NCBI RefSeq assembly: GCF_003984645.1
Contig: NZ_RWKI01000003.1
Location: 124,001-188,000, forward strand
Reading direction: 5' to 3'
Source: Variovorax sp. MHTC-1
GTDB taxonomy: Bacteria > Pseudomonadota > Gammaproteobacteria > Burkholderiales > Burkholderiaceae_C
DNA: 64,000 nucleotides
A program made the translations under genes and the position numbers. Below are positions 50,976-64,000 of this stretch, piece after piece (within the stretch, counting starts at the first letter, position 1; every line of letters begins with the position of its first letter). The notes under the pieces were generated by a model. That model was not told the DNA's origin. It saw nothing but the letters and a program-made list of their open reading frames with translations, and searched no databases.

Positions 50976-51767
50976 ATGTACGCCTTCACCCTCGAACGTC
51001 CCGCCAACGTCGCCGACGCAGCCAAGCTGGTCGCCGCCGGCGGCAAGGTGCTCGCCGGCGGCCAGACGCTGCTGGCCTCGATGAAGCTGCGCCTCTCGGC
51101 GCCCGAACAACTGGTCGACCTCGGCGGCATCAAGGAGCTCGTCGGCATCAAGAAGGAGGGCAATGCCTTCGTGATCGGTGCGATGACGCGCCACCTCGAC
51201 GTCGGCAGCCATGCCGAGGTCAAGGCGGCTTTTCCCGCGCTGGCCTGGCTGGCCGACCACATCGGCGACCGGCAGGTGCGAGCCATGGGCACCATCGGCG
51301 GCTCGATCGCCAACAACGATCCGGCGGCCTGCTACCCGAGCGCGGTGCTGGCTTCCGGCGCGACCATCGTCACCAGCAAGCGCGAGATCGCGGCCGACGA
51401 TTTCTTCCTCGGTCTCTTCACCACCGCGCTGGAAGAGGGCGAGCTCATCACCGCGATCCGCTTCCCGATCCCGAAGCGCGCCGCCTACGAGAAGCTGCGC
51501 CAGAAGGCCTCGAACTTCCCGCTGGTCGGCGTGTTCGTCACGCAGGGCGACAGCGGCGTGCGCGTCGCTGTCACCGGCGCGGGCAACGGCGTGTTCCGGC
51601 ACAAGGGGCTGGAAGATGCGCTCGCGAAGAGTTTCTCCCCCGAAGCAGCGGCCGGCGTGAAGATCGACTCGAGCGATCTCAACAGCGACCTGCATGCCTC
51701 GGCAGCCTACCGTGCCAACCTGATCAACGTACTCACACAGCGCGCAGTGAAGAAGGCGCTCGCGTAG
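50976..51767 (+). CDS. coxM: Molybdenum hydroxylase FAD subunit (CoxM-type)
   Basis: 263 residues with the FAD motifs AGGQTLLASMKLRLS and TIGGSIANNDPAACYP. It accepts electrons from CoxS and passes them to an acceptor. Its TAG stop (51765-51767) is formed by the terminus of a repeat element, so the original C-terminus may have been altered. Confidence 0.92.
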   Translation: MYAFTLERPANVADAAKLVAAGGKVLAGGQTLLASMKLRLSAPEQLVDLGGIKELVGIKKEGNAFVIGAMTRHLDVGSHAEVKAAFPALAWLADHIGDRQVRAMGTIGGSIANNDPAACYPSAVLASGATIVTSKREIAADDFFLGLFTTALEEGELITAIRFPIPKRAAYEKLRQKASNFPLVGVFVTQGDSGVRVAVTGAGNGVFRHKGLEDALAKSFSPEAAAGVKIDSSDLNSDLHASAAYRANLINVLTQRAVKKALA

Positions 51768-52034
51768 GGCCTGTTAGCCCATGAATCACCCCCGCGTGAG
51801 GCCCCACAGAGGGCCCAATCTAGGCGCCAAGCGGAACTGGGTTGCACACCCAGTGAGCATTGGCAACGACGAGTGGGCCCTCTGTGGGGCCTCACCCGGA
51901 GGGCCGGGGCGGCAAGGGGCGCATGGCGTCGTTGCGGTCCTTGCCCGGGGGGCGACCCCGGGCTGCGGCCCGCGCCTAGCCCTGCACCCCTTGCCGTCTC
52001 GGCGCGGGGGTGATTCACGGGCTAACAGGCCCTA
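51765..52034. repeat. Nested-hairpin inverted-repeat element, copy 1
   Basis: GGGCCTGTTA (51767-51776) and TAACAGGCCC (52023-52032) are the ends, flanked by TA on both sides; the terminal arms match over 29 of 30 bases. Inside, TGAGGCCCCACAGAGGGCCC (51797-51816) pairs perfectly with 51875-51894. An inner hairpin CTGGGT/ACCCAG, a second module CGGCAAGGGG/CCCCTTGCCG with inner CCCGGGG/CCCCGGG, and a cross-module pair GCAACGACG/CGTCGTTGC are also present. No transposase; likely a MITE or structured RNA element. Confidence 0.85.
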
Positions 52035-52044
52035 AGCTGGACAG

Positions 52045-60694: not shown

Positions 60695-61761
60695 CGATCA
60701 AGCGTTGCAGCTTCCTGGTGCCGGGTGACCTGAACACGCGCACCGGCGGCTACACCTACGACCGCCGCATCATCGACGGCCTGCGCGCGCAGCAGTGGGA
60801 GGTCGAGGTCCGGACCTTGGGCGAAGGCTATCCGGCACCCGATGCGGCAGCGCTTGCGCAGGCCGGCCGTGCGGCCGATGCCTTGCCCGATGGTTCGCTG
60901 GCGGTGGTCGACAGCCTCGGCTTCGGCGTCTTGCCCGATCTGGCGCAACGGCATGCGGAACGGCTTTGCTGGATCGCGCTGGTGCATCACCCGTTGTCGC
61001 TGGAGACCGGCCTCGACGCGGCGCAGCAGCGTGCCTTGTTCGAAAGCGAGCGGCGTGCGCTGGCCAGCGCGCGTGGCGTGATCGTCACCAGCCCTTCCAC
61101 GGCGCGAGCGCTGGCGGCTTTCGACGTCCCCGCTTCGCGCATCGTGGTGGTCGAGCCCGGCACCGAGCCGGCCCCCTTGGCTGCCGGCTCCGGCGACGGC
61201 GCCTTGTCGCTGCTGTGCGTGGCGACCGTGACGCCGCGCAAGGGGCATGCCCTGCTGATCGAAGCGCTGGCCGGGTTGAAGAACAGGCGCTGGACGCTGC
61301 ATTGCGCCGGCAGCCTGGTCATGGACGCCGCATGCGCATCGTCATTGATGCAGGCCATCGAAGATCACGGCCTGCGCGAACGCGTCGTGCTGCATGGCGA
61401 GCAGGACGAGGCGGGCCTGCGCGCGCTCTATGCGAAGGCCGATGCCTTCGTTCTGCCCTCGTTCCATGAAGGCTACGGCATGGCCCTTGCGGAGGCGCTG
61501 GCGCACGGCCTGCCGGTGATCAGCACCCGCGCGGGCGCCATTCCGGACACGGTGCCGGCCGATGCGGGGATGCTGGTGCCGCCCGGCGACGCGATCGCGC
61601 TGCGTGCCGCGTTGCAGCGGCTGGTGGACGATGCGGCGTGGCGCGCCCAACTCAGTGCCGGCGCGCAAATGGCCCGAGGCCGCCTGCCGACCTGGTCTCA
61701 GAGCAGCGTGCGCTTTGCATCGGCGCTTGCCGATTTCCGGCAGCAGGCCGGAGGCGCATGA
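60691..61761 (+). CDS. Glycosyltransferase family 4
   Basis: 356 residues from a TTG start (TTGA overlap). GT-B fold with acceptor domain from [20 protein letters not shown] and donor domain [19 protein letters not shown] and [17 protein letters not shown], the retaining GT4 motif. Between a pterin-synthase-like and a methyltransferase gene, it may glycosylate a small heterocycle or lipid rather than a polysaccharide. Confidence 0.9.
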
Positions 61762-62564
61762 CAGGCTTCAGCACCGACTGGCTCGCGCTGCGCGAGCCCT
61801 TCGATCGCACGGCGCGCAGTGCGTCGGCGGCGCTTCTGGATCTGCAGGCTGCGGCGGTCCGGCTGCGCGGCGACGATCCGGTCTTGCACGTGATCGACCT
61901 GGGCTGCGGCACCGGCGCCAATCTGCGCGAGTTGGCACCGCGACTCGGCGGCGCCCAGCAGTGGCTGATGGTCGACGACGACCCGTGCCTGCTGGCGGCG
62001 CTGCCGGAATCGATCGAAGCGCCGGGATGGCATGCGAACGTGCGTCCGATCCATCTCGACCTCGCGCTGGCGCTCGACGCCGTGCCTTTCGAAGAAGCCC
62101 GGCTCGTCACCGCCTCCGCGCTGCTGGACCTCGTGTCCGCCTCGTGGCTCGATGCGCTGCTTGACCATGTGCGGGCGGCGAACGTGGCCGCGCTCTTCGC
62201 GCTGAACGTCGATGGTCGGGCTGCGTGGGAGCCCGGCCTGGCGGGCGACGCGGAGGTCCATGAACTGTTCGCCGCCCATCAACGGCGCGACAAGGGTTTC
62301 GGGCCCGCGCTCGGCGGCGAAGCAGCGGCGCTGGCCGTCGCCCGCCTCGATGCGATGGGCTACCGCGTCACGCAGGCGCAGAGCGACTGGTGCATCGAGG
62401 AGCCGGGCATGTTGCGAGCGATGATCGAAGGCATGGCCGACGCGGCGCTGGAACAGGATCCGTCTGCGCAGGAGCGCGTCGGCGCATGGAAGGCGCGGCG
62501 GCTTGCGCTTGTCGATCGCACGTGCTTGCGCATCGGACATCTGGACATCCTGGCGTTGCCTTAG
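61758..62564 (+). CDS. Class I SAM-dependent methyltransferase
   Basis: 268 residues. The SAM-binding motif I is HVIDLGCGTGANLRELAPRL (about residue 46) with the acidic end of strand 2 in MVDDDP. Coupled to the glycosyltransferase by ATGA. Its TAG stop (62562-62564) is created by the end of the nested-hairpin element, so the C-terminus may have been set by insertion. Confidence 0.88.
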   Translation: MTGFSTDWLALREPFDRTARSASAALLDLQAAAVRLRGDDPVLHVIDLGCGTGANLRELAPRLGGAQQWLMVDDDPCLLAALPESIEAPGWHANVRPIHLDLALALDAVPFEEARLVTASALLDLVSASWLDALLDHVRAANVAALFALNVDGRAAWEPGLAGDAEVHELFAAHQRRDKGFGPALGGEAAALAVARLDAMGYRVTQAQSDWCIEEPGMLRAMIEGMADAALEQDPSAQERVGAWKARRLALVDRTCLRIGHLDILALP

Positions 62565-62834
62565 GGCCTGTTAGCGCTATTTGCGGGGTCGCGAAGGCCT
62601 GCCAGGGCGGGCCAATCAAGGCGCGCGACGCCGTGCGTGCGTCGGCACGCACAAGGAGCGCAACGCCGAGTGGCGCGCCCTGGCAGGCCTTCCCTTCGGG
62701 TTGCCCAGCCAAGGAGCCGTCTGCGGCGTTGCCCGCGCTTGCAAGGCGCAAGCCTTGCAAGCGCGGGCGCCTGGCATCCAGCCCCTTGGCTGGGCAACGC
62801 GATCCCCGCAAATAGCGTTATTTAACAGGCCCTA
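62562..62834. repeat. Nested-hairpin inverted-repeat element, copy 2
   Basis: GGGCCTGTTA (62564-62573) and TAACAGGCCC (62823-62832), flanked by TA. Module A: GAAGGCCTGCCAGGGCG (62593-62609) pairs with 62676-62692, inner GTGCGTGC/GCACGCAC. Module B: TTGCCCAGCCAAGG (62701-62714) pairs with 62784-62797; inner 17-bp stem 62731-62747/62752-62768 closes on GCAA, a GNRA-type loop. Cross pair GCAACGCCG/CGGCGTTGC. The architecture is that of copy 1 with different stem sequences. Its two ends form the TAG stops of both convergent genes. Confidence 0.85.
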
Positions 62835-63698
62835 CCCGGGATCCCGCAAATCCAGATCCCACAGCACATCCGCCCCCATGCGAAAAACCCGGCTCGCGGG
62901 GCGCGCGCAATCGCGCATCGATGCGCTTTGCGGCAGCAGCAGGCCGGGGCGCCCGCCGCCGATCAGCACCGGCGCGACGCTGAGGTGCAGCCGGTCCATG
63001 CAGCCCTGCGCGATGAAGTGCGAGACCGTGACGCCGCCGCCTTCGACGAACAGCACGCGCAGGCCGCGTTGCTGCAGCGCAGGGAGCAGTGCGCGCAAGT
63101 CCATCGCGCCCTTGGCGTCCATCAGACCCGGCACGCCCAGCACCTGATCGGCACCCACGCGCTGCGCCGCTTCGGCCTCGCGTGCTGCATCGCAGACGAG
63201 CAGGGTCGACGCCTGGCGATCCGTGAAGACGCGCAGCGTGGGCGCAAGGCGCAGGCCCGGATCGAGCACGACGCGTACCGGATTCGCACCCGCCACCCGG
63301 CGCGTCGTGAGCTGCGGGTTGTCGATGGCCGCGCTGCCGGAGCCCACGATGACCGCATCGCTGAGGGCGCGCAGCCGGTGCAGATGCAGCAGCACCTGCT
63401 CACCATTCACGTAGCTGGAATCGCCGCCGCGCGTGGCGATGCAGCCGTCGAGGCTCTGGCCCAGCTGGCCGATGACCCAGGGCGCGCCGTCGGGCGGCCG
63501 ATCGAGCAGGGGTTGGAGCAGCGCGAGCAGCTCGATCGCTTCGTCGTCCCAATCGTCGTCCGCCACCAGCGGCGTCGCCTGCGGCTGGCCGCTGCGGCGA
63601 CGCCGGGCGATGTCCAGGCACAGCGGCCACAGCCCTTGCACGCCGAACCTGCGGGGCTGGGTCGTGCTCATGAGCGGGCGCGGGTTGTGGGCATTCAC
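62832..63698 (-). CDS. RibD C-terminal-domain reductase (dihydrofolate-reductase-like)
   Basis: 288 residues from GTG 63698, which overlaps the upstream stop (GTGA); ATG 63671 is an alternative. The RibD_C fold shows VIGQLGQSLDGCIATRGGDS (about residue 75), VIVGSGSAAIDNPQLTTR and FVEGGGVTVSHFI. Relatives reduce the ribityl side chain of pyrimidines or pterins with NADPH. No deaminase domain. Its TAG stop is the end of the nested-hairpin element. Links to the pterin-like genes across the element. Confidence 0.85.
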   Translation of the reverse strand: MNAHNPRPLMSTTQPRRFGVQGLWPLCLDIARRRRSGQPQATPLVADDDWDDEAIELLALLQPLLDRPPDGAPWVIGQLGQSLDGCIATRGGDSSYVNGEQVLLHLHRLRALSDAVIVGSGSAAIDNPQLTTRRVAGANPVRVVLDPGLRLAPTLRVFTDRQASTLLVCDAAREAEAAQRVGADQVLGVPGLMDAKGAMDLRALLPALQQRGLRVLFVEGGGVTVSHFIAQGCMDRLHLSVAPVLIGGGRPGLLLPQSASMRDCARPASRVFRMGADVLWDLDLRDPG

Positions 63699-64000
63699 CA
63701 CCTGGGCTTGTAATAAGGGTCGTCCATGTTAGCGGCGGGCGTGTCGACCCCGCCCCAGTAGGCCAGTGCCAGCGCGGCGGCCACCCAAAGGGCTGCCACC
63801 GCGGCGACGATCAGCGTTTCGACCCAGGATCGGCCTTCGCCGCGCCGCAGGCGCCGATGCCCCCATCGCACCAGTGAGCCGGAAGTGAAGCACGCCGCCA
63901 GCAGCAGCAGCGCGCCCGGCGGGGCCGGCGTCAGCAGTGCCGTGGCCTGCGCCAGCGCCAGCCAGGCCAGCAGCGCGACGACAGCGCCGCTGGCGCCGAA
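63695..64000 (-). CDS. Membrane protein, C-terminal part (gene runs off the window)
   Basis: 101 residues are visible, open to the window edge. Three hydrophobic stretches (AVVALLAWLALAQATALL; GALLLLAACF; TLIVAAVAALWVAAALALAY) and a tail NMDDPYYKPRW. TGA at 63695-63697 overlaps the reductase GTG. Probably part of the same operon; family not recognised. Confidence 0.7.
   Translation of the reverse strand, partial: FGASGAVVALLAWLALAQATALLTPAPPGALLLLAACFTSGSLVRWGHRRLRRGEGRSWVETLIVAAVAALWVAAALALAYWGGVDTPAANMDDPYYKPRW

What the first reader, a model, noticed from the sequence alone, without database searches (positions are those of the whole stretch)
51765..52034. Nested-hairpin element whose stems differ between copies yet stay paired
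Copy 1 and copy 2 (62562-62834) share ends TA-GGGCCTGTTA...TAACAGGCCC-TA, length (266 and 269 bp between TAs) and a fixed plan: terminal arms, hairpin A with inner hairpin, hairpin B with inner hairpin, and a cross pair linking A to B. Arm sequences are unrelated (TGAGGCCCC... versus GAAGGCCTG...) but each is perfectly complementary to its partner. The cross pair changes in a compensated way: GCAACGACG/CGTCGTTGC in copy 1, GCAACGCCG/CGGCGTTGC in copy 2. That is covariation, so structure rather than sequence seems conserved. TA flanks resemble target duplication by IS630/Tc1-type transposases, suggesting a MITE, but the inner structure is far richer than typical MITEs.
Basis: partly seen in the sequence, partly recalled or inferred. 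Interest (0 to 1): 0.85.

Follow-up and report, generated by a model that had tools for sequence, protein, structure and literature searches.

The report
Folded mobile DNA carrying twin hairpins
These are two copies of a small jumping DNA element, probably moved by a borrowed cut-and-paste enzyme, that carries two back-to-back folded hairpins whose shape, but not sequence, has been kept across many distantly related bacteria, which is unusual for such tiny hitch-hiking elements.

Summary
The window's two copies (51767-52032 and 62564-62832, each flanked by TA) belong to a mobile family with 26 near-full-length copies found in this genome and relatives in Beta-, Gamma- and Zetaproteobacteria. 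They are non-autonomous elements (MITEs). Their 18-bp ends match an 827-bp insertion sequence with an IS5-family transposase, not IS630; they duplicate TA at YTAR sites, and three same-genus genomes have the empty site of copy 1. Inside are two head-to-head copies of one ~100-nt hairpin module on opposite strands. Stem sequences turn over while pairing is kept (covariation score 0.82, shuffles 0.20). Instead, the two sides of each module's internal loop are strongly coupled. The same module also occurs singly in 159-bp MITEs with other ends and a TCA duplication, so it is a portable part of several MITE families. No Rfam family matched. What the module does is unknown; I favour a folded strand that aids transposition, with an RNA role as close rival. 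New variant of a known kind.

The parts
51765..51766 (.). left TA target duplication of copy 1; with the first G of the element it forms the TAG stop codon of the upstream ORF
   Evidence: empty site GGCTAAGC in three same-genus genomes
51767..52032 (.). copy 1, 266 bp (copy-1 type; one other element of this type found in the genome)
51762..51796 (+). copy 1 left outer arm, including the terminal repeat GGGCCTGTTA (pairs with 52003-52037)
   Evidence: 35 nt, 94% complementary
51793..51897 (+). copy 1 hairpin module A, forward on + strand; core motif CTAGGCGC ... GCAACGACG
   Evidence: covariance model R1, 56.5 bits, E 2.7e-10
51901..52006 (-). copy 1 hairpin module B, forward on - strand
   Evidence: covariance model R1, 44.9 bits, E 9.9e-8
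52003..52037 (-). copy 1 right outer arm / terminal repeat
52033..52034 (.). right TA target duplication of copy 1
62562..62563 (.). left TA of copy 2; TA+G is the stop codon of the ORF 61638-62564 (+)
62564..62832 (.). copy 2, 269 bp (copy-2 type; 24 such elements found in the genome, 90-97% identical to copy 2)
62590..62694 (+). copy 2 hairpin module A, forward on + strand; core CAAGGCGC ... GCAACGCCG
   Evidence: R1 59.6 bits, E 5.3e-11
62698..62801 (-). copy 2 hairpin module B, forward on - strand
   Evidence: R1 56.6 bits, E 2.5e-10
62833..62834 (.). right TA of copy 2; on the - strand TA+G is the stop codon of the ORF 62832-63701 (-), so both convergent ORFs end on the element

Best explanation
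What it is (shown by sequence): a non-autonomous transposable element (MITE). Its ends are those of an 827-bp IS5-family insertion sequence, whose transposase would act in trans (inferred) and insert it at YTAR with duplication of TA, often into a gene's stop codon, which it restores as TAG. Between the ends sit two head-to-head copies of a ~100-nt hairpin module: a ~20-bp arm whose sequence is free but whose pairing is kept, a conserved two-sided internal loop ([A/T]AGGC ... AACG[C/A]CG), and an inner stem-loop. Each module is forward on its own 5' strand. How it works (inferred): the module acts as a folded strand, and I think it most likely that this fold, as DNA, takes part in or eases transposition by IS5-type transposases (about 0.35 on its own), because it is kept in mobile lineages with several different ends and near-fixed length, while resident copies do not repair it.
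For: Mobility: TA on both sides in 112 of 150 flanked elements, YTAR target in 102 of those 112; empty site of copy 1 in three same-genus genomes. Mobilizer: IS at L216:526-1352 with the 18-bp end TAGGGCCTGTTAACACTA, DUF4096 and DDE_Tnp_1 domains; ~828-bp relatives on plasmids with CTAG (4) or TTAG (1) flanks in the five read at both ends; no hairpin module in seven such IS loci at E <= 1. Fold: 16 of 16 RNAalifold pairs with double changes over 70 modules; 91.0% of cells paired against 56.2% shuffled, covariation 0.818 against 0.197 (sd 0.009) shuffled and at most 0.211 slid (150 modules). Near-fixed geometry: half-elements 130-132 nt in 255 of 294. Loop coupling: TAGG with AACnA in 25 of 27, AAGG with AACnC in 107 of 121; odds ratio 125, p 1.3e-17 (first cut). 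Inner arm next to the loop: T.G 104, G.T 17, A.C 9, C.A 7 of 1035 cells. Portability: same module in single-hairpin MITEs with other ends. Resident copies: 32 one-sided and no two-sided base substitutions at paired sites over 24 copies.
Against: No transposition, cruciform or binding was measured. IS5-type elements need only their short ends as far as known (recalled), and the IS here lacks the module. The strand asymmetry is confined to the five inner pairs: over arm positions 0-14 of the same table G-T type pairs are 89 and A-C type 98, and at positions 4-6 39 against 49, so a strand-specific fold of the whole arm is not shown; the inner T.G excess may partly be conservation of G in the 3' arm. 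This genome shows no match to the first frame of the transposase (no positive control). The covariation counts treat related sequences as independent.
Confidence: 0.6

Rival explanations
1. The hairpin acts as RNA: inserted at or just after stop codons, the element becomes a 3' untranslated region whose forward hairpin (first in the transcript from either side, because the two modules are head to head) stabilises, ends or shields the transcript, so that the insertion is harmless or useful to the host.
For: 38 of 108 gene 3' ends beside elements use the element's TAG as stop; 79 of 226 flanks have an open frame of at least 100 codons ending there against 46 and 31 in the other two frames; T.G excess in the inner arm; conserved, coupled loop sequence with variable stems is typical of structured RNA.
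Against: In single-hairpin relatives the forward strand is antisense to the right-hand gene, which reads toward the element in 23 of 26. Genes are tandem 46, convergent 31, divergent 22 around 99 double elements, with no strong 3' bias. Pairing in the middle of the arm almost lacks wobble (5 of 1035 cells) and outside the inner five pairs wobbles do not exceed A-C mismatches.
Confidence: 0.25
2. No selection on the arms: imperfect palindromes are corrected at DNA level by template switching in hairpins (a mechanism recalled, not looked up), which copies one arm onto the other and produces apparent covariation; the element is otherwise an ordinary MITE.
For: The middle of the arm is 92-100% Watson-Crick with almost no wobble intermediates, and most of the arm has no wobble excess; the segment between the arms is found inverted in L073 and L074, as palindrome rearrangement would give.
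Against: 24 resident copies show only one-sided substitutions at paired sites, none corrected; conserved loop motifs, loop coupling and near-fixed length are not expected from correction alone.
Confidence: 0.2
3. IS630/Tc1-type MITE as first suggested.
For: TA duplication and CTAG-type targets also fit IS630 (recalled).
Against: An IS with the same 18-bp end encodes an IS5-family transposase; none of the three PF13358 genes of the genome has these ends.
Confidence: 0.03

Closest known systems
IS5-family insertion sequences of about 828 bp (IS427-like group; group name recalled), e.g. on plasmids of Variovorax sp. SRS16 and Polaromonas sp. JS666
   Same: terminal repeats of the type TAGGGC(C/G)TGTTAACACTA with small variations, mostly CTA^G targets, TA on both sides
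   Different: they encode a transposase, and no hairpin module was found in seven of them
RUP of pneumococcus, ERIC of enterobacteria, Correia/NEMIS of Neisseria
   Same: short mobile elements with TA at their termini; RUP is proposed to be moved by the transposase of IS630-Spn1; ERIC RNA structure affects mRNA stability (passages of PMC2229807)
   Different: given there for single genera or groups; the passages read mention no head-to-head copies of one module and no module shared by families with different ends
CIR repeats of Caulobacter and Brucella
   Same: two long inverted-repeat arms joined by a linker and a phylogenetically conserved proposed RNA fold (passages of PMC2229807)
   Different: exposed GANTC motif in a terminal loop; no ordinary terminal repeat in its table; about 110 bp; alphaproteobacteria
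prokaryotic MITEs as reviewed in PMC10969869
   Same: non-autonomous elements thought to derive from insertion sequences
   Different: a find search of the main text gave no occurrence of nested, hairpin, covariation or cruciform (the paper was not read through)

Membership tests
MITE (miniature inverted-repeat transposable element) | short element with terminal inverted repeats in many copies | tested here: met
   26 elements of 252-273 bp with both ends in the genome
MITE (miniature inverted-repeat transposable element) | target duplication and empty sites | tested here: met
   TA both sides in 112 of 150 flanked elements; empty site of copy 1 in three same-genus genomes
MITE (miniature inverted-repeat transposable element) | related autonomous element with the same ends | tested here: met
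   L216 IS, in another genome of the same family; not found in this genome (no positive control)
MITE (miniature inverted-repeat transposable element) | no transposase of its own | tested here: met
   266 and 269 bp, too short for one; the ORFs of 150 aa or more that touch them run across their ends and were not run against protein families
MITE (miniature inverted-repeat transposable element) | transposition in trans demonstrated | not testable with these tools
   needs a bench assay
IS5 family (IS427-like group) derivative | ends match an IS with IS5-family transposase domains | tested here: met
   PF13340 E 1.5e-21, PF01609 E 6.4e-12; group label recalled
IS630/Tc1 derivative | ends match an IS with a DDE_3 transposase | tested here: not met
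   three PF13358 genes in the genome, none with these ends as its own; other genomes not searched
known structured RNA (Rfam 15) | match to a covariance model | tested here: not met
   no match at gathering threshold over the window, none at E<=1 over copy 1; in eight related loci only tRNAs and one sub-threshold match overlapping a tRNA, none on an element
REP/RAYT elements | short palindromes with GTAG tag mobilised by a Y1 transposase without target duplication (recalled) | tested here: inconclusive
   a TA duplication is present; tag and Y1 gene not searched
IS110/IS1111 bridge RNA | two-loop RNA inside a DEDD-transposase IS, no target duplication (recalled) | tested here: inconclusive
   two-hairpin look is similar, but a TA duplication is present; no bridge-RNA model or guide pairing was tested

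The most novel reading that the evidence does not exclude
A portable nucleic-acid module, a hairpin with a coupled internal loop, has been kept across much of the Proteobacteria because it does something for transposition itself (for instance presenting the ends as a folded strand, or steering target choice and orientation), and it has been exchanged between MITE families with different ends. This would be the first such structural 'accessory' of MITEs known to me.
Probability: 0.3. Interest if true: 0.85.

Novelty: new variant of a known kind. Interest (0 to 1): 0.68.

Why it matters
MITEs are usually regarded as short-lived debris of insertion sequences (recalled). Here a non-coding element keeps one fold, with turnover of stem sequence, over several proteobacterial classes, and the same fold appears in MITEs with different ends. 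That makes it testable whether parasitic DNA can be under long-term selection for a folded strand, and whether structure-aware surveys have overlooked a widespread family: 68 of 249 sampled genomes of the phylum, this one included, hold a match to the module, and no Rfam model covered it where I looked.

Tried and rejected
Rfam searches found no RNA family on the elements searched. An IS630 gene beside one end (L203/L213) looked like the mobilizer but is itself inserted into a copy-2-type element and has other ends. The first frame of the L216 transposase was not found in this genome, a search without positive control. Viral contigs gave five stretches with one or two ends and no IS with them, and no mobilizer or module beside the 15 matches to the ends of the TCA type. 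Searches of plasmids and phages with copy 2 gave one plasmid record and no phage. Literature: searches for the end sequence, IS427+MITE (58), MITE with structure terms, DUF4096+MITE (71) and MITE with host genera (94) listed nothing that, by title and start of abstract, describes this element; the library holds open-licence papers only, and the listings were capped at 10-25 rows.

I first thought the single-hairpin elements might leave no true duplication, because left and right triplets often differ (TCA/TTA). At the one such site examined, the two relatives whose empty site I could read have TCA there (ten genomes searched), so a TCA duplication with a later TGA-to-TAA change is simpler. Whether orientation bias also holds away from stop codons stayed open: the 7:0 count includes short loci in which the open frame was cut off by the locus end, so I do not use it.

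For this I lowered the main reading from 0.62 to 0.60 and the RNA rival from 0.27 to 0.25, and raised palindrome correction from 0.15 to 0.20. The loop states were defined loosely and were recounted.

Rows dropped: 5 of 155 elements with under 40 nt of flank; 11 of 218 half-elements with under 12 of 18 arm pairs; 8 of 155 elements without a recognisable centre; 52 of 218 half-elements in which the loop motifs could not both be read; elements with under 600 nt of flank, with no ORF on one side or with repeated flanks, and 24 with a neighbour more than 500 bp away; six single-hairpin loci whose ends were not recognised; the 9 of 35 rows whose ends were not placed at 159 bp.

Full report
Observation. 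Each folds about 15-16 standard deviations better than its shuffles. Arms are 84-94% complementary in copy 1. Identity between copies is 52%, about the same as to the reverse complement (50%).

Copies in this genome. The 12-mer TAGGGCCTGTTA occurs 56 times against 1 for its reversed, uncomplemented control. Read out, this gives 26 elements of 252-273 bp with both ends: 2 of the copy-1 type and 24 of the copy-2 type, the latter 90-97% identical to copy 2 in either orientation. Others are cut by a contig end, truncated, interrupted by an IS630-like element, or reduced to 28-bp palindromes holding only the two ends.

Relatives. Exact-ended elements of this length occur in 19 of 150 genomes of the same family, this one included. 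In all, 155 distinct elements, 117 after thinning. Within the allowed range 114 of 142 end pairs are 264-267 bp apart; a CCC...GGG centre is present in 147 of 155, in 142 of them as CCCNNNGGG, and half-elements are 130-132 nt long in 255 of 294.

Anatomy. Each half, read from its own 5' end, has the same plan: terminal repeat, outer arm shared with the other half, then a hairpin with a ~20-bp arm, an internal loop with 5' motif [A/T]AGGC and 3' motif AACG[C/A]CG, and an inner stem-loop. A covariance model of the half (R1) gives 203 matches in 100 loci, typically as pairs about 3 nt apart on opposite strands, for example in L096, L157 and L202, and both halves of both window copies. So the element is two head-to-head copies of one module.

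Covariation. Over 150 modules the 16 modelled pairs are 91.0% paired against 56.2% in shuffles; the covariation score is 0.818 against 0.197 (sd 0.009) in shuffles and at most 0.211 with partners slid. That alignment was fitted to the model's structure, which leans it that way, and the counts treat related sequences as independent; the MAFFT alignment of 70 modules from which the model came gave double changes at 16 of 16 RNAalifold pairs. In the middle of the arm (positions 9-13) pairing is 92-100% Watson-Crick while all four pair types occur.

Strand. In the five inner pairs of the arm (positions 15-19, 207 half-elements, 1035 cells) T.G occurs 104 times, G.T 17, A.C 9, C.A 7. In the middle (positions 9-13) wobbles are 5 and A-C mismatches 9. 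Over positions 0-14 taken together there is no excess of wobbles (89 against 98), and at positions 4-6 A-C types are the more frequent (49 against 39). The outer stem shows no asymmetry either (72 against 65). So a forward-strand signal exists only beside the internal loop, and conservation of G in the 3' arm may contribute to it.

Loop and cross pair. What is coupled is within a module: TAGG goes with AACnA in 25 of 27 and AAGG with AACnC in 107 of 121 (11 with A, 3 with other bases); odds ratio 125, p = 1.3e-17; a further 18 of the 166 modules read carry GAGG or CAGG.

Mobility. Of 150 elements with flanks, 112 have TA on both sides, and 102 of these 112 lie in YTAR (CTAG 52, CTAA 40, TTAA 10). 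For copy 1, three of the eight other same-genus genomes in the search carry the uninterrupted site GGCTAAGC with one TA; in the other five the region is more diverged or aligns in pieces. The target is often a stop codon that the element's first G restores as TAG: 38 of 108 gene 3' ends by a simple ORF call, 79 of 226 flanks against 46 and 31 in other frames. In copy 2 both convergent ORFs end this way.

Mobilizer. In a genome of the same family (G030) a contig ends with an IS of 827 bp with the same 18-bp end; the contig stops at its right end and has an N just before its left end, so its flanks are not fully seen. Its two frames, divided at a run of A, match DUF4096 and DDE_Tnp_1. Relatives aligned over their full length on three plasmids are 75-79% identical; in the five read at both ends the flanks are CTAG in four and TTAG in one. 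Seven IS loci contain no hairpin module. The IS427-group label is recalled.

Other families with the module. R1 matches 68 of 249 genomes of the phylum at E <= 0.01, this one included, with end variants GGGCCTGTTC, GGGTCTGTTG, GGGCGTGTTG and GGAGCCTGTCGG. In the same genus the module also occurs once per element, in 159-bp MITEs with ends of the kinds GAAGGTGTGAATGAA or GAGGCTGAGAGG and a 3-bp duplication, and once with ends GGGCCGTAACAG. For one such insertion the seven same-genus loci that I aligned have the empty site with a single TCA. In core-forward orientation the left triplet is TCA in 23, TTA in 2 and TGA in 1 of the 26 rows placed at 159 bp out of 35 read, and the right-hand gene reads toward the element in 23 of 26. 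Some of these insertions may be shared by descent. The orientation bias is unexplained: symmetric ends should not give it, but selection at stop codons could.

Tempo. Among the 24 copy-2-type residents, all 32 base substitutions at paired sites are one-sided (8 to wobble, 13 to A-C, 11 other; 25 further changes are gaps) and none is compensated. So the fold is not seen to be repaired where copies sit; it is kept over the longer history of mobile lineages.

Mechanism. Shown: a mobile family with IS5-type ends, conserved pairing, loop coupling, reuse of the module. Inferred: that the transposase moves it in trans, and that the fold aids transposition as DNA (my first choice), acts in RNA (second), or that the arms are kept by palindrome correction (third). 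The data do not decide between them.

Novelty. The kind (IS-derived MITE, some with RNA-level effects such as ERIC; passages of PMC2229807) is known. A portable, covarying hairpin module spread over a phylum is not described in what the listed searches returned, and no Rfam 15 family matched.

Noticed in passing
L308-L337, L373-L376 (same-genus genomes): 159-bp single-hairpin MITEs with the same module but other ends and a TCA duplication, inserted in almost one orientation only (TCA 23: TGA 1), often at a TGA stop codon read from the right.
   Followed up: partly
L034, L057 (28 bp), L220 (58 bp), L219 (169 bp, one half lost), L286 (module B collapsed): Terminal-only or half-lost remnants, as expected from deletion inside palindromes.
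   Followed up: partly
L073 and L074, right half: The segment between the two arms of a module is inverted relative to other copies.
   Followed up: partly
L203 / L213 (own genome C82): An IS630-like element with ends TTGATCAG...CTGATCAA sits at a TA inside a copy-2-type element, close to its right end.
   Followed up: yes
L296, L297 (G185): Elements in which module A is present but module B is replaced by a plain hairpin without the loop core.
   Followed up: no
L324, L326, L328, L330, L374: Right-hand triplet of single-hairpin elements often TTA where the left is TCA; at one site two relatives show TCA, suggesting repeated TGA-to-TAA change of the neighbouring stop codon after insertion.
   Followed up: partly
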